This document shows, in pieces, positions 1 through 8,133 of a stretch of DNA of 41,744 nucleotides. This DNA comes from Caldimonas tepidiphila. Its GTDB lineage: Bacteria; Pseudomonadota; Gammaproteobacteria; Burkholderiales; Burkholderiaceae_C. Under the pieces are notes generated by a model that worked only from the letters and a program-made list of their open reading frames with translations, ran no database searches and was not told where the DNA came from. The position numbers and the translations under genes are program-made. Location: positions 1 through 41,744 of the forward strand of contig NZ_QXMG01000049.1 of the NCBI RefSeq assembly GCF_003569765.1, read 5' to 3'. The first letter of the stretch is position 1. Every line of letters begins with the position of its first letter.

Positions 1-127
1 TAACTCCGTCCGGGGTCAGGGGAATCTCGCTCTCAATCTATTTGCGCAACAAAGCCAGGTTGAGCAGCCGATGCATGGCATCACGCCACACCAAGAGTTG
101 CGCAAAAGCGCCTACCGCCCTTCGCAC

Positions 128-633: not shown

Positions 634-650
634 TGGCGGAGAGAGCGGGA
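634..650. repeat. Left attachment site core (attL), 17-bp direct repeat
   Basis: TGGCGGAGAGAGCGGGA is identical to 6779-6795. Read on the minus strand it is the end of the tRNA-Ser T-stem, the acceptor 3' strand, the discriminator and CCA. At this end it also forms a perfect 7-bp inverted repeat with 654-660 (TGGCGGA and TCCGCCA, 27 bp overall), the geometry expected of a tyrosine-recombinase core site. Confidence 0.88.
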
Positions 651-703
651 CACTCCGCCAAAGCATCATTTTTCCCCATGACGCTGGGGCAGAAGAGGGT
701 CAA

Positions 704-727
704 CGTGGGGGAAAGGCGTGGGGTAAA
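704..727 (+). repeat. Left pair of arm-type repeats
   Basis: CGTGGGGGAAA (704-714) and CGTGGGGTAAA (717-727) are direct repeats with 13-bp periodicity, 54 bp inside the left core. The same motif pair with the same spacing lies inside the right core (6693-6716). The placement matches arm-type integrase binding sites of tyrosine-recombinase elements. The repeats are seen directly; their function is inferred. Confidence 0.7.
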
Positions 728-752
728 CTGCCTCGCTCAACCCGGAGCCCCC

Positions 753-2000
753 ATGCCCCACATCGAGAAGTGCCGGAACCTCTGGTACGCCACACTGAAG
801 GTCCCCGCGGCGCTACGCAACAAGGTCGGCAAGACGAAGTTCAAGCAGTCCCTCGGCACTGCGGACAAGCGCCGTGCGCAGGCTCTTGCCGCCCCGCTCG
901 TGGCCCTCTGGAAGGCCAAGCTGCGGCAGGTAGCGGGCGAGGAGGATGCCGTACAGCGCGAGGCGCTGCGCTGGCGTGAGGCCATCGCAGAAGTGAAGGC
1001 CGCTGGCGATACTGAGGCCGTCCAGTTGATTCAGTCGCTGATGGCCGCCGAGGCAGAGAACATCGAGGAGCAGCGGGGCGCGCACGAGGCGGAGCGGTTC
1101 GCTGGCGTTGCCTCGGGCCACAAGACCCCCACCGGCCTGCACTTCCAGGAGTGGAAGGCGTCCATCACCCACTTGGAGCAGAAGACCCAGGACCAGTACG
1201 TCAAGGACGTACGGCACTTGGTAGACCAGTTCGCCGCCTTGGAGGACATCACGCCACAAGCAGGGCGGAGGTGGATGGAGCAGCTACAGCAGAGCGGGAC
1301 CTCCCCCTCGTCACTGAAGCGCATGCTCTCCTGCTGGCGCAGCTACTGGCGCTACCTAGGAACCATTGATGCGGTCCCGCCCAATAGCTTCCCCTTCAGC
1401 AGAGACAACATCCGCGAGGCCCGCAGGGTCCCCAATGACTCCTGGAGCCCCTTTGCACCGGCGGATGTTCCGAGGCTGTGGCAGGCGGCCAAGGAGAAGA
1501 GAGACGGCCCGCTAGCTGATCTGATCATGCTGGGTGCGTACACGGGTGCGCGCATCGAAGAGTTGTGCAGCTTAGAACTGGCTAACGTAGGCCCCCAGTC
1601 CTTCCGCATCAAGGACGCGAAGACGTCAGCCGGCTGGCGCGAAGTCCCGATCCACAGCAAGCTGAGGCCACTGATGAAGCGGCTCAGGGAGGAGTCGAGG
1701 GACGGCTACCTGCTGACCGGGCTCACCTTTAACAAGTACGGCGACCGCTCCAATGCCATCAGCAAGCGGTTCGGGCGCCTGAAGAGTGGGCTGGGGTTCG
1801 GGGAGAACCACGTCTTCCACTCACTACGGAAGACGCTGATCACCCTGCTGGAGGACGCGGGGGTCTCAGAAAACCTTGCGGCGGACATCGTGGGGCACGA
1901 GAAGCCCCGCATTACCTACGGGCTGTACTCCGGCGGGGCGTCCCTTGCCACCAAGGCCGAAGCCATCGAGCGCGTCCGGTACGAGGGCCTCGGGCCCTAA
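753..2000 (+). CDS. int: Site-specific tyrosine recombinase (phage-type integrase)
   Basis: This 415-aa integrase probably catalyses insertion and excision of the element at tRNA-Ser. The N-terminal part resembles the short beta-type domain of integrases (WYATLKVP, QSLGTADKRRA, residues 11-41). A core-binding helical domain spans about 125-215 and the catalytic domain about 230-400. Catalytic residues visible are R267 in TGARIEEL, K290, H356 and R359 in HSLRK, H382 in GHEK and the nucleophile Y392 in YGLYSGG. I chose the ATG at 753 because GGAG lies 7 bases upstream and homologues begin close to this point; the frame is open further upstream through the attachment site. It reads away from the left core, with its promoter region lying among the arm repeats. 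Confidence 0.95.
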   Translation: MPHIEKCRNLWYATLKVPAALRNKVGKTKFKQSLGTADKRRAQALAAPLVALWKAKLRQVAGEEDAVQREALRWREAIAEVKAAGDTEAVQLIQSLMAAEAENIEEQRGAHEAERFAGVASGHKTPTGLHFQEWKASITHLEQKTQDQYVKDVRHLVDQFAALEDITPQAGRRWMEQLQQSGTSPSSLKRMLSCWRSYWRYLGTIDAVPPNSFPFSRDNIREARRVPNDSWSPFAPADVPRLWQAAKEKRDGPLADLIMLGAYTGARIEELCSLELANVGPQSFRIKDAKTSAGWREVPIHSKLRPLMKRLREESRDGYLLTGLTFNKYGDRSNAISKRFGRLKSGLGFGENHVFHSLRKTLITLLEDAGVSENLAADIVGHEKPRITYGLYSGGASLATKAEAIERVRYEGLGP

Positions 2001-2276
2001 GGCCCCCCGGATGTTCACCGCAAAAATCCGAACGGGTATCGGATAAGCACTCCGGCCCGCTTCCCCCCCGTGGGGGTACCCCTTCTGGAGCGGCCAGCAG
2101 GCGGCCGTAGCGTCCCGCTGAAGCAACCCTTGCGGGAGAGGGAAGACAGGAGGCAAGGCGAAGGCTCAAAGCGTAGCACGGCCTCCGCTATGGGAGCTTC
2201 CCGCGATGCATGCAGATGGGGGGACTGGGCACACTGGCAGCGCTGTAAGCAACACGCAACCAAGCGCAACCAGACC

Positions 2277-2582
2277 ATGCAAACCATTGCCGCCCGTAGC
2301 TCCGCCGCCTTCGCTTCCCTGCTGACCCAGACCGCCGCCCTTGCGGTCTCCTGCCTGCGTCCTCTGGTGCGGCACAAGCTGACCGAGGAGGAGTGCGAGG
2401 CTGCCGGACTGCCCCTCGGCAGCACCGTCCCCGCCGTCCATGTGCTCCGCGTTGTGGGCTCACCGTGGTGGCGCCTGGGGGCCTGGGCAGACAGGACCGA
2501 CCCGACCGGGGGCAGCCTACACCTCCGCCTCCTGGGCTGGGAGGGGGAGGTCTACTACTGGCGGCGGGCGGCCAACACCTAA
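2277..2582 (+). CDS. Hypothetical protein of the element
   Basis: The predicted product is 101 aa and begins MQTIAARSS, after 276 bp without a clear gene downstream of the integrase. An Ala/Leu-rich N-terminal segment is followed by HKLTEEECEAAGLP and a Trp/Tyr-rich C-terminal half (WWRLGAW, YYWRRAA). I recognise no family. The same strand and spacing as the following small gene (2677) suggest a shared transcript. The Shine-Dalgarno sequence is not obvious and an upstream extension to 2070 is open, so both the start and the coding call are uncertain. Confidence 0.45.
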   Translation: MQTIAARSSAAFASLLTQTAALAVSCLRPLVRHKLTEEECEAAGLPLGSTVPAVHVLRVVGSPWWRLGAWADRTDPTGGSLHLRLLGWEGEVYYWRRAANT

Positions 2583-2676
2583 ACCCTTCCTCTCGCACAA
2601 GGCGGAGTACCGCCCCAAACCTCGGACGGCCGGCAAGGCCCCGGGGGACCTCCCCACCCCTCAACAAGGACCTCCC

Positions 2677-2940
2677 ATGAGGATGATTGCGCGCACGCCC
2701 TGCCACCCCAAGCAGCTCCAGCACACCCCAACCGGGGAGCTGCGGGCCTCCATCATGCCGACGACGCTGCGAGACCTCCGGCTCCTCTGGGAGCACCACA
2801 ACCAGACCGCAGCGGAGGCAGGGACTGGCCTGGAGGCGGCCACGTTCGATGACTTCATGCGCCTGCTGATAGGAGCCTTCCTACAAGCAAGCACCGACAC
2901 GAGCCGCAGCGCACTTCCACGCGGTCAAATCGCTCCGTAA
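2677..2940 (+). CDS. Small hypothetical protein of the element
   Basis: The 87-aa product begins MRMIARTPC and has a predicted helical C-terminal half (LRDLRLLWEHHN, DDFMRLLIGAFLQ). AAGGA ends 7 bases before the ATG at 2677, which decides the start over the longer open frame reaching back to 2440. I do not recognise the protein. It lies 94 bp downstream of the 101-aa gene on the same strand and upstream of the direct-repeat array at 3035-3081. Confidence 0.55.
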   Translation: MRMIARTPCHPKQLQHTPTGELRASIMPTTLRDLRLLWEHHNQTAAEAGTGLEAATFDDFMRLLIGAFLQASTDTSRSALPRGQIAP

Positions 2941-3034
2941 GCCATTGATTTATAAGGAACTCTCTCCTCGGCAGCCTCCATTCTGTGGTCTAAACCCTCC
3001 CCATAGCCCCCACCCTCCCTCCCCCTCCTTCACT

Positions 3035-3081
3035 CCTTAAGGTAAACCTCAAGGTGACCTCAAGGCAGCCTCATGGGGCCT
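3035..3081 (+). repeat. Iteron-like array of about 11-bp direct repeats
   Basis: CCTTAAGGTAAA, CCTCAAGGTGA, CCTCAAGGCAG and CCTCATGGGG follow one another, with a fifth CCT at 3079. The CCT positions are 3035, 3047, 3058, 3069 and 3079, close to one helical turn apart. The array ends 35 bp before the gene at 3117. Helically phased repeats of this kind often bind an initiator or repressor; here the ligand is unknown. Confidence 0.6.
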
Positions 3082-3116
3082 CTTAGGGAGAGGACAGACC
3101 AAGACCACCACGGACC

Positions 3117-3674
3117 ATGATTCCCAGTCCCACCCCCTCCCCCTTCGAGCTGTACGCCAACCTCCCCCAAGACCGAAGGGTCGCAAGGGCAGCAGGGCTC
3201 AAGCACTACTTCCCCGCCCTTCGCTGCCTGCAGGGGCACATGTGTCTACGCCGGGTGCATGACGCAAAGTGCCTCCGTTGCCTGGAGGTCGAGCAGCAGG
3301 CGAAGAAGGCAGCACAGCAGAAGGAGCTGGACCGCGCTACCGCCAAGGAGCGGGCCATGCAGGCCAAAGAGCGGGCCGCCAAGGAGCAGGCAGCCGAGGA
3401 GGCACGGGAGGCACGGGAGGCCAAGGAGGCCGCCAGGAGAGCCGCCAGGAGAGCCGCCAGGGAGGAGCGAGAGCGGGAGCGGAAGAAGGCGAAGGCCGCA
3501 GCCACCCGAGCAGCGAACAAGGTCGCCAGGGCGGCAGCCGCAGCCGGGGAGGTCTCCAGCGCCAGCAGCGCCGCTCCTCCTGCTGTCCTCGCCGAGCCGG
3601 CGGTCGAGCTGCTGCCCCTGCTGCCACCGCTCTGGGGCGGGGATGCCGGGGACGATGCCGCTCCGTGGGAGTGA
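3117..3674 (+). CDS. Hypothetical protein with HNH-associated Cys/His motif and basic helical tail
   Basis: The product is 185 aa. Residues 30-56 carry C37, GH at 40-41, C43, C52 and C55 (CLQGHMC then CLRC), the arrangement of the small zinc-binding element found beside phage HNH endonucleases and related DNA-binding proteins. Residues 57-140 are one long Lys/Arg/Glu/Ala-rich helix or coiled coil, and the C-terminus is Ala/Pro-rich. No HNH catalytic core is present, so I do not call it a nuclease. A DNA-binding or regulatory role is inferred from the motif and from the repeat array immediately upstream. Its stop faces the convergent serine recombinase. Confidence 0.65.
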   Translation: MIPSPTPSPFELYANLPQDRRVARAAGLKHYFPALRCLQGHMCLRRVHDAKCLRCLEVEQQAKKAAQQKELDRATAKERAMQAKERAAKEQAAEEAREAREAKEAARRAARRAAREERERERKKAKAAATRAANKVARAAAAAGEVSSASSAAPPAVLAEPAVELLPLLPPLWGGDAGDDAAPWE

Positions 3675-3791
3675 GAGCGAGCGCATAAGACAGGCCGCAG
3701 CACACGCGAGAGACCGGCGCCAGCCTGGCCCCTCCCCGGCCTCCTGCGGGTCACCACGGGGCCGCCAAGGGCCTCTCAGGGCCCTCTTCCC

Positions 3792-4376
3792 TCAGGCAGG
3801 GACGCTGGCGCAGTACCGCTTGACAGTGGCCGGAGACAGCCGCCAGTGCTCGGCGGTCTCGACGATGGTTGCCCCCTTCTCCCGGCGCCACGCGGCGACC
3901 TCCGCCGGGTCTGCCTCCTTCGGCCTGCCCATGCTCGCCTTCCCCCGGTGGGTCCTCCCGGTCTCTGCTAACGAGGCCCGCGCCTTGTCCCGCCCGGCGG
4001 CAGTGCGCTCCACGATCCGGGCTCGCTCCATGTCCGCCACCTGGGCCAGGACCGCGAGGATGAGTTCCCCGACCCCCTGCGCGATACGCCCCAAGCCGTG
4101 AACTTCGACAGCCACGCCGCGCTGCAGCAGGGCCCGCACGGTCGCTTGCACGTCGAGCGCATCGCGCCCCAGGCGGTCCACCGCGTAGACGTGGAGGGTG
4201 TCCCCCTTGCGGATGAACTGGAGCAGGGAGGCGAAGCCGGGCCGCTGGGCCGCCGGGATGATGCCGCTGACCCCCTCGTCCTTGAACTCGTGATCGAAGC
4301 TGCCCCCCATGGCGTGGCGCTGGGACTCGATGGTCTGGTCGGTCGTGGAGCAGCGGTAGTAGGCGATGCGGGTCAT
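3792..4376 (-). CDS. Serine recombinase, resolvase/invertase family
   Basis: The 194-aa enzyme is the size of small Tn3-resolvase/DNA-invertase proteins. The catalytic domain (1-140) shows R8 and nucleophile S10 in YYRCSTTDQ, the VDRLGRD motif (R68, R71) and the E-helix signature MERARIVERT. Residues 149-190 form the GRPKEAD hinge and a helix-turn-helix ending SPATVKRYCA. Such proteins cut with a 5'-phosphoserine linkage and resolve or invert DNA at short paired sites, often next to their own gene. The divergent intergenic region contains nested repeats (4399-4490) that could be those sites. A second recombinase beside a tyrosine integrase could serve dimer resolution, inversion or a separate nested unit. 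Confidence 0.92.
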   Translation of the reverse strand: MTRIAYYRCSTTDQTIESQRHAMGGSFDHEFKDEGVSGIIPAAQRPGFASLLQFIRKGDTLHVYAVDRLGRDALDVQATVRALLQRGVAVEVHGLGRIAQGVGELILAVLAQVADMERARIVERTAAGRDKARASLAETGRTHRGKASMGRPKEADPAEVAAWRREKGATIVETAEHWRLSPATVKRYCASVPA

Positions 4377-4398
4377 GGTCTGCGTCCCGGGAGAGGCT

Positions 4399-4490
4399 CA
4401 AAAGGTATGGCTCATATCATGCCTTAGCTCACAACACCCCGCAAGTACCTTTTGCGCCATCACAGGCCCCGCTTCTGGCCATGGCTCATA
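4399..4490. promoter_or_regulatory. Divergent intergenic region with nested repeats, candidate resolvase site or operator
   Basis: Between the serine recombinase and the 335-aa gene, CAAAAGGTA (4399-4407) and its perfect inverse TACCTTTTG (4446-4454) are 56 bp end to end. ATGGCTCATA occurs twice as a direct repeat (4407-4416 and 4481-4490). Location and symmetry fit recombinase recombination sites or autoregulatory operators. The repeats are seen; the role is inferred. Confidence 0.5.
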
Positions 4491-4539
4491 ACTTAGAAGT
4501 TCTGACCCCCACTTTTCACCCAACCCCAACGAGTACCCC

Positions 4540-5547
4540 ATGACCATCCGCGTTCAACACATCCCTGAGAGCATCTCCTCCCAAGCGGAGCCGCAGCCGG
4601 CAGACCTCGGCCAAGGCAGCGCCCGAGTCCACGCCGGCCCCATCCGCTACGGCCAGGACGCCGGGCACGCCGAACCAGTACAGGCGGGCGTGGCACGTCA
4701 TCAGGTCAGCTTCGATGGCACCTCCGGCGGCTCCATCCTCGCCACGCGGCAGAAGCATGGCCCGCATGAGACAGTCGAGCTGATCCCCGGCGACCCCAGC
4801 AGTCGCACCCTCCTTCGCGTGGCTGTCCGGGAAGGCCTCCTCAAGGAGACCGCGCCGGGAATCTACGCGGACGCCCTCACCTCCACTGGCCAGCAGCGCA
4901 CTCTGGAGACCGTGCAGGCCGAGCAGCAGCAGGCCGCACACGAGCAGCGGCAGGCCCTGGAGGAGCAGCAGGTGGCCGACAGCGCTGGCATCTTCAACCC
5001 ACAGGAGGACGCCGCATGGCAGGCCGACATGGAGAGCATCCCCGAGCACGCCTTCCGCTCGACCATGGCAGGCGTGGTCAATGCGGTCACCCTTGGCACC
5101 GACTTCAGCGGAGCAGTGGATGCGCTGGTCCGTGATGCGGCTATGGAGCCCGCGCAAGCCACCGAAGTGGTCGAGAACGCCTACTGGGCGCAGGAGCAGA
5201 TCGTGGCCCGCGCCCTCGCCAAGGTCGGCATCAGCGAGGACATGAAGGAGGCCGCCTATACGGACTTCCAGCAGAACCCGGGCAAGCTGCAGAACGCCCT
5301 GCACTACCTGCTGCACGGCCGTGACGTTAGCCACCTCCAGCAGATGGGACGGGACTGGCTGGACCGCACGCAGCGGCAGGCCGCCAGCAAGGGCCCGGAA
5401 CGCCCCACAGCGAGCCCAGCGAGTGGACTGGAGGGCACCCTACAGGCCGCCGGTTTCGAGACCTCCACGAGCCCGCAGGGCGTGCTGCTGATCAAGACGG
5501 GCCCTAGCGGGAAGTGGGTCCCGGCTGCCGATGTGCTGAGGGCGTGA
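4540..5547 (+). CDS. Hypothetical protein of the element, 335 aa
   Basis: I do not recognise this protein. The N-terminal 65 residues are Gln/Ala/Gly-rich and look disordered. Residues about 70-115 look folded (ETVELIPGDPSSRTLLRVAV, then EGLLKETAPGIY). Residues 115-150 are a Gln/Glu/Ala helix likely to coil. Residues 160-290 are helical, and the C-terminus (SGLEGTLQAAGFETS to WVPAADVLRA) looks like a separate small domain. There is no signal peptide or membrane segment. It diverges from the serine recombinase and is followed by a hairpin and a strong terminator, so it is a single-gene unit. The composition recalls phage virion-associated or scaffold-like proteins, but that is only an impression. 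Confidence 0.8.
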   Translation: MTIRVQHIPESISSQAEPQPADLGQGSARVHAGPIRYGQDAGHAEPVQAGVARHQVSFDGTSGGSILATRQKHGPHETVELIPGDPSSRTLLRVAVREGLLKETAPGIYADALTSTGQQRTLETVQAEQQQAAHEQRQALEEQQVADSAGIFNPQEDAAWQADMESIPEHAFRSTMAGVVNAVTLGTDFSGAVDALVRDAAMEPAQATEVVENAYWAQEQIVARALAKVGISEDMKEAAYTDFQQNPGKLQNALHYLLHGRDVSHLQQMGRDWLDRTQRQAASKGPERPTASPASGLEGTLQAAGFETSTSPQGVLLIKTGPSGKWVPAADVLRA

Positions 5548-5548
5548 G

Positions 5549-5583
5549 CCTGGAGGCCCCCGAGAGGATCAGGGGCCTCCAGG
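5549..5583 (+). terminator. GC-rich hairpin after the 335-aa gene
   Basis: A perfect 12-bp stem (5549-5560 with 5572-5583) with an 11-nt loop starts just past the stop codon. It has no T tract, so it may stabilise the mRNA 3' end or back up the canonical terminator 15 bp downstream. Confidence 0.5.
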
Positions 5584-5597
5584 GGCTGCGTCTTCTC

Positions 5598-5628
5598 ACA
5601 GGTGGCGTTTGCGCGCACCTGTTTTTTT
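5598..5628 (+). terminator. Intrinsic terminator
   Basis: ACAGGTG (5598-5604) pairs with CACCTGT (5616-5622) and runs straight into seven T residues. This is a canonical rho-independent terminator ending the 335-aa gene transcript. Confidence 0.88.
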
Positions 5629-5693
5629 GCGGGCAGACGAACCTAAGGCGGAGCCCCGCCCCGTTTCGCTCCGCCACCCCAGGGGGCCGACGA

Positions 5694-6608
5694 TCAGTTC
5701 TTTGGCAGCGCGTTCAGGTACACGCGGAACTGCTCTACCTCGTCAGTATTGAGCCCCACCGCCTCAATGAACGGGGTCAGGTTCGCCTGGGTTAGCAGCA
5801 GTCGCCCCCTATTGATAGACGCCCCCGCCCGCTCCAAGACGGAGTCCACCTCCCCTACCCACTTCGACCACCTGCGGAGGTCTTCGTAGCTCAGAGCATC
5901 AATGCTCAACTGATCCAACTCCTTCAGTTGCTCCTCCAGTGTGATCACCAGAAGTTGAAGGAGGTTGTTCTCCGGGTAGAGGGCCTCTAGGCCCACCACC
6001 TCTGCCACCGGCACCTCGATGACATGGGGGCGCGGGAGACGGCGGCCCTGCGCCTGCTCGATCTGCTCCACCTCATGAGGTGTTGCTTCACGTACTGCAT
6101 GAAGGACAGTCTGCCGCGTCTTTACCATTTCCATGATGCGGCGGACCACCTTGGCCGGCACGCCCTTGCCTCCCTCTATTAGAGGTAGGCTTGTCTTGTA
6201 GACCCAATTACCTCCCCGGTCCTGTACACGCATCTCCGTGACTTGGTCTGCGACCTCCTCCAGCCGCATGTAGAACCCCCACAGCTTCTCGCGGTTCTGC
6301 TTCTCGGTGAGGTCCCGGTCGAACTTGTTGGACAGCGTCTCGAAGTCCACGCCGAAGTACGTCTTCCCGCAGTCCTTGCCAATGTTGGTTTCCCGGCCGT
6401 CCTTGGTGACCACGATATAGCCACGGCCGTGCGGCTTTTGGCAGTTAGACAGCCCGCAGGGAACCCAGTCGCGGAAGGCATACCGGCCAATGATGGTCTG
6501 GAGTTCATGCGCTTGAGGGTCCAAGCTGCTTGTGAAGCCGGCGCGGCTGGTGATGTCCTCCCAGCTCTCCACGGTGATGATCTCTTTGGTGTTCGACAGG
6601 ACGATCAA
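5694..6608 (-). CDS. Hypothetical protein with Cys/His cluster, 304 aa, TTG start
   Basis: The N-terminal part contains C51, C56, H60 and C80 (PCGLSNCQKPHGRGY, later GKDCGKTYFG), a plausible zinc-binding fold embedded in beta-rich sequence. Residues 100-150 are a charged helical stretch, and the rest is helical with a Leu-rich segment near 215-250. I know no function for it. The start is TTG at 6608: GGAGG lies 7 bases upstream and no earlier ATG is available. It is transcribed towards the convergent 335-aa gene, and its upstream side abuts the right end of the element. Its codon use looks less GC-biased than neighbouring chromosomal genes, which fits recent acquisition. It could be cargo or an element-maintenance function. 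Confidence 0.8.
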   Translation of the reverse strand: MIVLSNTKEIITVESWEDITSRAGFTSSLDPQAHELQTIIGRYAFRDWVPCGLSNCQKPHGRGYIVVTKDGRETNIGKDCGKTYFGVDFETLSNKFDRDLTEKQNREKLWGFYMRLEEVADQVTEMRVQDRGGNWVYKTSLPLIEGGKGVPAKVVRRIMEMVKTRQTVLHAVREATPHEVEQIEQAQGRRLPRPHVIEVPVAEVVGLEALYPENNLLQLLVITLEEQLKELDQLSIDALSYEDLRRWSKWVGEVDSVLERAGASINRGRLLLTQANLTPFIEAVGLNTDEVEQFRVYLNALPKN

Positions 6609-6654
6609 GCGGGGGCCTCCTCAAGGTCAGGCAGGTAGTTGCGAAGCGGCAACG

Positions 6655-6691
6655 AAAAAGGGCCCGGAGGGGTTAACCTCAGGGCCCTTTT
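6655..6691. terminator. Bidirectional intrinsic terminator inside right end of element
   Basis: AAAAGGGCCC (6656-6665) pairs with GGGCCCTTTT (6682-6691), with an inner GAGG/CCTC pairing. It works on paper in both directions. On the minus strand it would end tRNA-Ser transcripts that now read into the element, replacing the displaced native terminator at 595-629. Confidence 0.8.
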
Positions 6692-6692
6692 G

Positions 6693-6716
6693 CGTGGGGG
6701 AAACACGTGGGGGAAA
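6693..6716 (+). repeat. Right pair of arm-type repeats
   Basis: CGTGGGGGAAA occurs at 6693-6703 and 6706-6716, with 13-bp periodicity, 62 bp inside the right core. It matches the left pair (704-727) in sequence, orientation and spacing, as expected for integrase arm sites. Confidence 0.7.
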
Positions 6717-6742
6717 CTTGCTTCCCCCCTGATCGCTAAGTC

Positions 6743-6765
6743 CTTGTTTTGCAAGGCTTTTTTTA
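6743..6765 (+). terminator. Weak intrinsic terminator facing out of the element
   Basis: A short stem (CCTTG with CAAGG) is followed by CTTTTTTT on the plus strand, just before the right core. It would stop transcripts leaving the element antisense to tRNA-Ser. Confidence 0.5.
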
Positions 6766-6778
6766 GTTCTCAGTGTAG

Positions 6779-6795
6779 TGGCGGAGAGAGCGGGA
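6779..6795. repeat. Right attachment site core (attR), 17-bp direct repeat
   Basis: Identical to 634-650 and forming the 3' end of the intact tRNA-Ser gene, including the encoded CCA. Integration has therefore regenerated a complete tRNA. Confidence 0.88.
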
Positions 6796-6869
6796 TTCGA
6801 ACCCGCGGTGGGCTGTTAACCCACACACGCTTTCCAGGCGTGCGACTTAAACCACTCATCCATCTCTCC
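6779..6869 (-). tRNA. tRNA-Ser(GGA)
   Basis: The 91-nt gene has acceptor arms GGAGAGA and TCTCTCC, a long variable arm, the GGTTCGAATCC T-arm, discriminator G and encoded CCA. The anticodon loop CTGGAAA gives anticodon GGA, reading UCC and UCU. It is the integration target of the 6.2-kb element. Confidence 0.97.
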
Positions 6870-6901
6870 AGGATTCGGGTCTCGCGCTAGCGAAGTTCGC
6901 C

Positions 6902-6907
6902 ATTGTA
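6902..6907 (-). promoter_or_regulatory. Probable -10 element of tRNA-Ser promoter
   Basis: TACAAT on the minus strand lies 33 bp upstream of the mature tRNA 5' end. The -35 region overlaps the T tract of the livK terminator and has no good TTGACA match. Confidence 0.5.
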
Positions 6908-6921
6908 GCAAGTTTTTGGAA

Positions 6922-6947
6922 GAAAAAAGCCCGCCTTGCGGCGGGCT
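6922..6947 (-). terminator. Intrinsic terminator of the livK-like gene
   Basis: AGCCCGCC (6928-6935) and GGCGGGCT (6940-6947) form an 8-bp stem with a TTGC loop, followed on the minus strand by T6. It lies 46 bp past the stop codon at 6994. Confidence 0.9.
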
Positions 6948-6993
6948 CGTGCGGCGATGCTTCGCGGAGCGTCGCTCGTGATGTCGGAGTCGC

Positions 6994-8133
6994 TCAGCGG
7001 ACCACGGCGATCTGCTCGCGCTTGCCACCCTTGAAGGTGAACAGCGTCAGCGCGCCGTTCTTGATGTCGCCCTTCTCGTCGAAGCCGATCGCGCCGGTCA
7101 CGCCCTTGTAGCCGTCGGTCTTCGCCAGCACCGGAAGGTACTTGGCAGGCTCCGTCGAGCCGGCCTTCTGCATCGCGGCGACCATCACGTTGACGGCGTC
7201 GTAGACGTAGGGCGCGTAGAGCTGCACGTCGGTGTTGAACTTCTTCTTGAAGGCGACACGGAAGTCCTCCATCGCCTTCTTCTCGGCCCCCTCGACCCCG
7301 CCGGCCTCGGCGCAGACGACCTGGCCGTCGGCCAGCGTGCCGGAGGCGAGCTTGGGCAGCTCGCCCGTGCAGATGCCGTCGCCGCCCATGAACTTGACGT
7401 TGAGGCCGAGCTGCTTCATCTGGCGCAGCATCGGGCCGGCCACCGCGTCCATGCCGCCATAGAAGACCACGTCCGGCTTCTTGGCCTTGATGGAGGTCAG
7501 GATGGCGGTGAAGTCCGTCGCCTTGTCGTTGGTGAACTCGCGTGCGACGATCTTGCCGCCGGAGGCCTTCACGCCCTTCTCGAATTCGTCGGCCACGCCC
7601 TGCCCGTAGGCGGTGCGGTCGTCGATCACCGCGATGCTCTTGCCCTTGAGCTCGTTGACGGCGTAGCGGCCGAGCGTGCCGCCGAGATGCACGTCGTCAG
7701 CCACGACGCGGAAGGCGGTCTTGAAGCCCTGGCGGGTGTACTTGGGGTTGGTCGCCGACGGCGAGATCTGCGGGACGCCCGCGTCGCTGTAGATCTTGGA
7801 GGCCGGGATCGTGGTGCCGGAGTTCAGGTGCCCGACCACGCCCACGACCTTGGAGTCGATCAGCTTCTGCGCCGCCGCGGTGCCCTGCTTCGGATCGCCC
7901 GCGTCATCCTCGGCCAGCAGTTCGAACCGGACCTTCTTGCCGCCGATCGTCACGCCCTTGGCATTGAGTTCGTCGATCGCCATGCGGGCGCCCATCTCGT
8001 TGTCCTTGCCGAGGTGCGCGATCGCACCGCTGGTCGGACCCACGTGCCCGATGCGCACCACCTCCTGTGCCATGACCGCACCGCCCATCGACAGCGCCAT
8101 GGCTCCCACGATCAGATTCACTTTGTAGTTCAT
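6994..8133 (-). CDS. livK: Branched-chain amino acid ABC transporter substrate-binding protein (LivK/LivJ family)
   Basis: A 379-aa periplasmic binding protein of the type I fold. A Sec signal peptide (residues 1-22, cleaved after VMAQ) precedes the mature start EVVRIGHVGP. Family motifs include GPTSGAIAHLGKD, GVVGHLNSGTTIPA near residue 100, the hinge AFRVVADD and YAPYVYDAV near 320. These proteins deliver Leu, Ile, Val or related substrates (amides, short-chain acids) to a LivHMGF permease. The permease genes are not in this window, so the gene is monocistronic here and the real ligand is unknown. It ends at a strong terminator just before tRNA-Ser. Confidence 0.95.
   Translation of the reverse strand: MNYKVNLIVGAMALSMGGAVMAQEVVRIGHVGPTSGAIAHLGKDNEMGARMAIDELNAKGVTIGGKKVRFELLAEDDAGDPKQGTAAAQKLIDSKVVGVVGHLNSGTTIPASKIYSDAGVPQISPSATNPKYTRQGFKTAFRVVADDVHLGGTLGRYAVNELKGKSIAVIDDRTAYGQGVADEFEKGVKASGGKIVAREFTNDKATDFTAILTSIKAKKPDVVFYGGMDAVAGPMLRQMKQLGLNVKFMGGDGICTGELPKLASGTLADGQVVCAEAGGVEGAEKKAMEDFRVAFKKKFNTDVQLYAPYVYDAVNVMVAAMQKAGSTEPAKYLPVLAKTDGYKGVTGAIGFDEKGDIKNGALTLFTFKGGKREQIAVVR

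What the first reader, a model, noticed from the sequence alone, without database searches (positions are those of the whole stretch)
634..6795. Compact tRNA-Ser element with defined att sites and unrecognised cargo
The 17-bp core duplications, paired arm-type repeats and integrase define the element almost to the base. The remaining genes (87, 101, 185, 304 and 335 aa) match no family that I know, and there is no phage, plasmid or conjugation module. A 6.2-kb unit of this sort could be a phage satellite, a defence or counter-defence islet, or another mobile element class. The sequence shows its structure; its role is open.
Basis: partly seen in the sequence, partly recalled or inferred. Interest (0 to 1): 0.8.

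Follow-up and report, generated by a model that had tools for sequence, protein, structure and literature searches.

The report
tRNA-Ser mobile element, satellite-like kin
A small piece of DNA that has inserted itself at the end of a tRNA gene turns out to belong to a scattered family of similar elements, two of whose larger members carry genes for the DNA-injection proteins of a phage but no recognised gene for a phage shell, which suggests that they may travel by borrowing phage particles.

Summary
A 17-bp core repeat (634-650; 6779-6795, the 3' end of tRNA-Ser GGA), paired arm repeats and a tyrosine integrase delimit a 6,145-bp element; tRNA stretches from five same-genus relatives hold one core copy each. 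The finding omits a 194-aa serine resolvase (3792-4376, minus) with a res-like region. The 304-aa protein is PHROG 7003, a stand-alone gene of phages, plasmids and chromosomes, with a confident predicted fold and no structural match.

The new result is a family. Integrase relatives led to nine further loci, five with both ends seen (tRNA-Ser, tRNA-Asp, tmRNA); a 335-aa homologue led to one more at tRNA-Ala in Eleftheria terrae. The 335-aa protein recurs in four of the 11. In the two larger of these it lies upstream of T7-type ejection proteins (gp13/14/15-like; gp16-like), with no capsid, portal, tail or large-terminase hit among the proteins scanned. Six of 11 carry predicted defence genes near the integrase.

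Best reading: a compact member of a family of phage-satellite-like integrative elements, possibly mobilised by T7-like podophages. Integration and kinship are well supported; packaging and helper dependence are inferred. The window element itself has no recognised virion gene.

The parts
634..650 (+). distal 17-bp core copy (att core, integrase side), followed by CACTCCGCCA, which forms an inverted repeat with the core start
   Evidence: the layout GGCGGAG...GGGACACTCCGC also stands beside the integrases of L118 and L120, similar ones beside those of L117, L121 and L124
704..729 (+). arm-type repeat, integrase side: two GTGKGGKAAA copies 13 bp apart
   Evidence: same motif and 13-bp spacing at both ends of L117, L120, L124
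753..2000 (+). tyrosine integrase, 415 aa
   Evidence: Pfam/PHROG hits; 64% to the integrase of element L120
2277..2582 (+). 101-aa protein of unknown function
   Evidence: one relative, in element L120, 1.4e-6 within a small set; no family hit to the 100 aa searched, initial Met left out
2677..2940 (+). 87-aa protein of unknown function
   Evidence: ORF only; no reliable hit
3117..3674 (+). 185-aa protein, Cys-containing N-terminus then Ala/Lys/Glu-rich
   Evidence: phrog_1081, 1e-5, residues 20-78
3792..4376 (-). 194-aa serine resolvase
   Evidence: Resolvase 1e-26, HTH_7 1.9e-5; 42% to the E. terrae element resolvase
4377..4504 (.). res-like region upstream of the resolvase with repeated TGAGCC motifs
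   Evidence: 4373-4504 is 87% to G000:C90:12247-12378, where the DNA search matched no resolvase; similar repeats, by eye, upstream of the C19 resolvase. Function inferred.
4540..5547 (+). 335-aa protein, signature gene shared with three other elements
   Evidence: relatives L120 341 aa 3e-35, E. terrae 287 aa 2e-14, L125 298 aa 3.2e-11 by HMM; E-values for small sets
5694..6608 (-). 304-aa cargo protein, PHROG 7003, putative Zn site C51/C56/H60/C80
   Evidence: AlphaFold2 pLDDT 93.3, no PDB or BFVD match at E<=0.001
6652..6695 (.). terminator-like hairpin
   Evidence: inverted repeat I14
6693..6718 (+). arm-type repeat, tRNA side
6779..6795 (+). core copy inside the tRNA 3' end
6779..6869 (-). 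tRNA-Ser(GGA), target gene

Best explanation
This is a compact, integrated, phage-satellite-like mobile element. SHOWN BY SEQUENCE: integration at the 3' end of tRNA-Ser(GGA) with a 17-bp core; arm sites of the same motif and spacing as in three relatives; an integrase, a resolvase with a res-like region, a signature 335-aa gene and a cargo gene; single core copies in five relatives; membership of a family of tRNA/tmRNA elements with a mobile core (integrase, often a serine recombinase, in some a 335-type gene and a helicase) and exchangeable defence genes near the integrase. INFERRED: the integrase excises the element as a circle; the resolvase resolves multimers of that circle; the element is packaged by a helper phage, most likely a T7-like podophage, because two larger relatives carry ejection genes of one T7-like lineage and no other recognised virion gene; the 335-aa protein works with the ejection/internal-core step or its expression. 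The 304-aa protein is cargo, perhaps anti-phage or regulatory.
For: att structure and integrase. Single cores in relatives. Integrase relatives, own genome not counted: 2 of 399 genomes of the order at E<=1e-40, 6 of 399 of the family and 1 of 369 of the class at E<=1e-80. Exact core repeats (16-19 bp) with one copy in a tRNA or tmRNA 3' end in 6 of 11 loci: WIN, L120, L124, L125, L126, ETER; L117 has an imperfect one. Arms with 13-bp spacing at both ends in WIN, L117, L120, L124, 4 of the 7 with both ends seen. Serine recombinase cluster in 8 of 11. 335 family in 4 of 11. Ejection genes: L120 171 aa phrog_308 3.7e-5, 172 aa T7_gp14 2.1e-13, 998 aa 51% over 991 aa to the gp15-position protein of viral contig L061; E. 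terrae 1304 aa phrog_342 6.8e-113, 43-50% over two stretches to the L061 gp16-position protein. tblastn of 18 and 16 plus-strand ORFs of the fetched parts of L060 and L061 against nine element spans (E<=1e-4) hit only these. A prophage-like T7-type gene row with a gp16-type gene lies in the chromosome of G001 of the same genus (layout judged by ORF lengths). Predicted defence genes near the integrase in L117, L121, L122, L124, L126, ETER; antirepressors in L117 and L121.
Against: The window element has no recognised virion, packaging, AlpA or primase gene; only 2 of 11 loci, L120 and E. terrae, carry ejection genes, each a partial set. E. terrae's integrase is distant (27%; long branch), so it may share modules rather than descent. 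The recombinases of L120 and L124 are of another subgroup: L120's joins the cluster only through L124. Arms were not found in L125, L126 or ETER; in L126 the integrase lies at the tmRNA end, not at the distal core. No helper was recognised in the window's genome: its phrog_342 hits cover only profile positions 7-150, a region that also rings in 7 of 14 control genomes. Whether L060/L061 are temperate was not tested. The 335 family has no match in 50,697 phage records with the L120 copy. No excision, transfer or expression data exist.
Confidence: 0.5

Rival explanations
1. A tRNA-integrating defence or cargo island without a dedicated helper: it excises and integrates by its own integrase and moves by transduction or transformation; the ejection genes in two relatives are leftovers of prophage recombination.
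For: Six of 11 loci carry predicted defence genes near the integrase; islands of this description (tyrosine integrase at tmRNA/tRNA, direct repeats, no transfer genes) are described as widespread (PMC12595487, passages read). The window element has no virion gene.
Against: In two elements with distant integrases the ejection genes follow the same 335-type gene (one small gene between in E. terrae) and a related helicase gene lies upstream; of the ORFs of two T7-like contigs only those in the gp13-gp16 positions have matches.
Confidence: 0.27
2. An anti-phage element: the family's ejection-protein homologues and the 335-aa protein act as decoys that spoil assembly or ejection of T7-like phages; the 304-aa protein and R-M genes add defence.
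For: Partial ejection sets without other recognised virion genes; defence cargo.
Against: The 998-aa and 1304-aa proteins align over most of their length with phage proteins, so they look like whole proteins rather than truncated inhibitors; no test of interference exists.
Confidence: 0.13
3. A degraded remnant of a larger element, now immobile.
For: No helicase or ejection genes in the window copy; the tRNA has been rearranged relative to its neighbours in relatives.
Against: Core repeats, arms and the integrase and resolvase frames are intact; L125 and L126 are similarly compact with intact cores.
Confidence: 0.1

Closest known systems
P4-like satellites
   Same: Small integrative element with tyrosine integrase; defence genes near the integrase in relatives (for P4-like: passages of PMC8628076).
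   Different: No Psu, delta, AlpA, epsilon or alpha hit among the window proteins; Sid has only a custom profile, not run; has a serine resolvase.
PICI / cfPICI
   Same: Integrase at one end, specific attachment site, accessory genes (PICI: passages of PMC6092414).
   Different: No AlpA/Stl, primase or TerS hit among the window proteins; two larger kin carry ejection genes. cfPICI features are recalled.
PICMI
   Same: Very small gene set, integrase (passages of PMC10803314).
   Different: AlpA, primase and Fis, used there to define PICMI, were not found in the window proteins.
I55-type tmRNA/tRNA islands of Pseudomonas
   Same: Tyrosine integrase, direct repeats at a tmRNA gene, defence cargo, no transfer genes; I55 is moved as a satellite by a jumbo phage (passages of PMC12595487). 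Family member L126 also sits at tmRNA.
   Different: These encode AlpA; the word resolvase does not occur in that paper, and the 335 family and ejection genes were not mentioned in the passages read.
T7-like podophages (viral contigs L060, L061; G001 prophage-like row)
   Same: Ejection proteins of the two larger relatives are 36-51% identical to those of L060/L061.
   Different: No capsid, portal, tail, fibre or large-terminase hit among the element proteins scanned; the fetched parts of L060/L061 have no 335-type gene.
PHROG 7003 proteins
   Same: The 304-aa cargo is a member; one relative lies near cI in phage vB_PaeP-D14S.
   Different: Function unknown; no widely recurrent neighbour gene.

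Membership tests
Integrative element at a tRNA gene | integrase gene plus direct repeat whose one copy completes the tRNA 3' end | tested here: met
Integrative element at a tRNA gene | empty site in relatives | tested here: met
   single core in 5 of 5 tRNA-holding stretches of five relatives; left flank not comparable
Integrative element at a tRNA gene | excised circle and restored attB | not testable with these tools
   needs reads or PCR
Phage satellite (general) | dependence on a helper phage for transfer | not testable with these tools
   no transfer data
Phage satellite (general) | incomplete set of virion genes in the family | tested here: met
   L120 and E. terrae: ejection genes only, among the proteins scanned; not every small ORF of L120 was scanned
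Phage satellite (general) | virion or packaging gene in the window element itself | tested here: not met
P4-like | Psu, delta, Sid, AlpA, epsilon, alpha | tested here: not met
   no such Pfam hit among the window proteins; Sid has only a custom profile, which was not run
PICI | AlpA/Stl regulator and primase/rep | tested here: not met
PICMI | integrase, AlpA, primase, Fis | tested here: not met
   only the integrase found
Integrative conjugative or mobilizable element | relaxase or conjugation genes | tested here: not met
   no relaxase hit; a TraX hit to the integrase far below its cut-off (0.0072) is disregarded
Family proposed here | integrase of this group, serine recombinase and 335-type gene | tested here: met
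   window and L125 have all three; L120 too, but with a recombinase of another subgroup; E. terrae has the last two with a distant integrase
PHROG 7003 (304-aa cargo) | full-length profile match | tested here: met
   residues 1-301 to 1-308 of 309, 3.4e-63

The most novel reading that the evidence does not exclude
A new class of phage satellite whose larger members bring their own DNA-ejection machine. They encode inner-core (ejectosome) proteins of T7-like podophages behind a signature 335-type gene, with no capsid, portal, tail or large terminase, and would reload a helper's particle with satellite-encoded ejection proteins; the window element is the stripped-down form that keeps only the signature gene.
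Probability: 0.33. Interest if true: 0.85.

Novelty: new variant of a known kind. Interest (0 to 1): 0.6.

Why it matters
Known satellites, as far as I recall, alter the head, packaging or gene expression of their helpers; none that I know of carries the ejection proteins. If confirmed, the family would be a natural case of swapping the DNA-delivery step of a phage particle, would give a satellite model for T7-like podophages, and would offer a signature gene (335 family) for finding further members. In the rows listed by seven paper searches (some lists capped, judged by title and start of abstract) I saw no description of satellites with ejection proteins; most subscription papers and all preprints of bioRxiv are outside that library.

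Tried and rejected
335-aa protein: no further relatives in viral contigs (L120 copy), in species genomes by six 8-residue patterns, or by two-row profile in 399 order genomes (own genome only, at most five candidates scored per genome); in 60 relatives only the own genome and G004. 304-aa protein in viral contigs by six patterns: none. AlphaFold2 of the 335-aa protein alone: pLDDT 54, not used. 304-aa fold against PDB and BFVD: nothing at E<=0.001. Integrase against phages: 30 records, none covering 80% of it; 24.6-34.1% identity in the 12 listed. L120 gp15-like and helicase proteins in viral contigs: none. That the 304-aa gene marks a conserved neighbourhood was rejected: apart from antisense shadows its most widespread neighbour family is in 6 of 34 loci, with an example from Pseudomonas. 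A dyad at the presumed res site I was not shown (8 of 25 ungapped), so I call it only res-like. phrog_342 'rings' in 9 of 9 genus genomes and 7 of 14 controls, mostly at profile positions below about 200, which I read as a general transglycosylase domain (inference); only G004:C4 and G001 match positions 205-1228, and G003:C13 and G004:C2 match the last 400 weakly. The stops that one search counts inside three integrase matches: for G481 and G770 the match runs past the gene's own stop by coordinates; G505 was not checked; open frames of 416-437 aa exist in all three.
Full report
OBSERVATION. The 17-bp core at 634-650 and 6779-6795 is exact and not expected by chance (mean 0.03 matches at up to 2 mismatches, none of 100 shuffles with two). 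The right copy is the 3' end of tRNA-Ser(GGA), 6779-6869 minus. Arm-type repeats at 704-729 and 6693-6718 each hold two GTGKGGKAAA copies 13 bp apart. The integrase (753-2000) carries the Phage_integrase and DUF6538 domains. Core to core is 6,145 bp. The finding leaves out a 194-aa serine resolvase at 3792-4376 minus and, upstream of it, a res-like region that has an 87% copy at G000:C90:12247, where the DNA search matched no resolvase.

SITE. The host belongs to a genus that includes Eleftheria terrae (inferred: G004 contig 4 has the length, 737,245, and the matching gene position of the E. terrae plasmid record). Five stretches of same-genus genomes that hold the tRNA contain the core once each (L110, L111, L113, L114, L116; the other two stretches examined, L112 and L115, hold no copy; of the 91-kb interval in G007 only two parts were read). 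In the window genome the tRNA is inverted relative to livK compared with G008 and G006, and the gene that lies 5' of it in G004 and G008 is on another contig. The left flank ends in a repeated, IS-like end and no part of 1-660 has a match in the other eight genomes of the genus, so the empty site could not be compared on that side.

304-AA PROTEIN. It matches phrog_7003 over its length (3.4e-63), with relatives in 4 phage records, 20 plasmid records and 34 loci of species genomes. In phage vB_PaeP-D14S it lies near cI; in Escherichia phage vB_EcoS-611R1 it lies between tRNA genes and Q on the other strand. Outside antisense shadows its most widespread neighbour family is in 6 of 34 loci. In 31 rows C80 is invariant and C51, C56 and H60 are at 90% or more. 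AlphaFold2 gives pLDDT 93.3, without a PDB or BFVD match at E<=0.001. It is best seen as an exchangeable cargo gene of unknown function.

335-AA PROTEIN AND THE FAMILY. In 60 relatives its only match outside the own genome was in G004, the E. terrae genome, in an island of 14.7 kb between tRNA-Ala(CGC) and a 17-bp copy of its 3' end with integrase, AbiJ-type protein, divergent resolvase, helicase-like 624-aa protein, the 287-aa homologue (26%, 2e-14) and a 1304-aa protein that matches phrog_342, internal virion protein, at 6.8e-113. Searching the integrase gave nine more loci: L117, L118 (order, 399 genomes), L120-L125 (family, 399 genomes) and L126 (class, 369 genomes). Both ends were seen in seven of the 11 (WIN, L117, L120, L124, L125, L126, ETER): exact core repeats in six (16-19 bp), imperfect in L117. 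Targets are tRNA-Ser(GGA) in WIN, L117, L120 and L125, tRNA-Asp(GTC) in L124, tmRNA in L126 and tRNA-Ala in ETER. L118 and L123 end at contig ends; the far ends of L121 and L122 were not found within about 19 kb. In L126 the integrase lies at the tmRNA end; in the other six it lies at the distal core. A serine recombinase is present in 8 of 11 by BLAST clustering, that of L120 linked only through L124; the helicase is in 3 and the 335 family in 3, and in a fourth, L125, by HMM (3.2e-11). E-values of these local comparisons are for small sets. The window integrase is 64% identical to that of L120 and its arms are nearly those of L120. In the tree WIN and L120 pair with support 88/99, below the starred level; E. 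terrae is a long branch.

EJECTION GENES. L120 (15 kb) has, directly after the 335-type gene, proteins matching phrog_308 (3.7e-5) and T7_gp14 (2.1e-13), an 83-aa ORF, and a 998-aa protein 51% identical over 991 aa to the protein in the gp15 position of viral contig L061. E. terrae has the gp16-position protein of the same lineage, behind its 287-aa homologue and a 122-aa protein. tblastn of 18 and 16 plus-strand ORFs from the fetched parts of L060 and L061 against nine element spans found only those in the gp13-gp16 positions, three in L120 and one in E. terrae. Family scans covered 10 proteins of L120 and 12 of E. terrae in at least one of two libraries; no capsid, portal, tail or large-terminase hit appeared. 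The 128-aa E. terrae protein has a weak small-terminase hit (5e-4; DNA_Packaging_2 0.005), on which I do not rely. That L060/L061 are T7-like is my reading of gene order and ORF lengths; the names gp13/15/16 for positions are by analogy with T7 and recalled; whether these phages are temperate was not tested. The fetched parts held no 335 relative, and the L120 copy found none in 50,697 phage records at E<=0.01.

DEFENCE CARGO. Near the integrase lie: a type II restriction enzyme, methyltransferase and Vsr (L117), a type I restriction subunit (L121), a type I methyltransferase (L124), caspase and TIR-like proteins (L122), a candidate PDC-S15 protein (L126) and an AbiJ-type protein (ETER). In the window no PADLOC family reached E<=0.001; L120 and L125 were not scanned with PADLOC; L118 and L123 are truncated. 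A 347-aa protein of L117 had no PADLOC hit. L117 and L121 also carry phage-type antirepressors.

MECHANISM. Integration and kinship rest on sequence. That the element excises, that the resolvase handles multimers, and that a T7-like helper packages it are inferences. A prophage-like row with a gp16-type gene occurs in G001 of the genus, but none was recognised in the window's own genome by phrog_342. Against the satellite reading: the window copy lacks any recognised virion, AlpA or primase gene and only two of 11 loci have ejection genes.

COMPARISON. P4-like, PICI and PICMI hallmarks are not met by the window element (passages of PMC8628076, PMC6092414 and PMC10803314). The nearest described biology is the tmRNA islands with defence cargo of which one, I55, is carried by a jumbo phage as a satellite (PMC12595487, passages). 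From PMC11389934 I read passages only; all other papers were seen as search listings.

Noticed in passing
window 1-57: The contig begins in a repeated, IS-like end found at 31 other places at least, many of them contig ends (40 of 70 candidates scored).
   Followed up: no
window 6779-8133: tRNA-Ser(GGA) is inverted relative to livK compared with G008 and G006; the gene 5' of it in G004 and G008 lies on G000:C3 near 160371.
   Followed up: partly
G000:C90:12247-12378 (L003 1501-1632): Solitary res-like region, 87% identical to the one upstream of the window resolvase.
   Followed up: partly
G000:C19:84657-85220 (L002, L011): A resolvase gene 70% identical in DNA directly after an arfB-like gene near a contig end; perhaps another element.
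   Followed up: no
L124 14319-16930; L007 5131-7913; L120 11880-13622: Recurrent helicase-like protein in three elements (phrog_2467 in L120 and L124), with a related Cys-containing protein beside it in two.
   Followed up: partly
L120 4154-6035: Two small mutually related proteins (134 and 124 aa) and a DUF2806 protein at the tRNA end of the element.
   Followed up: no
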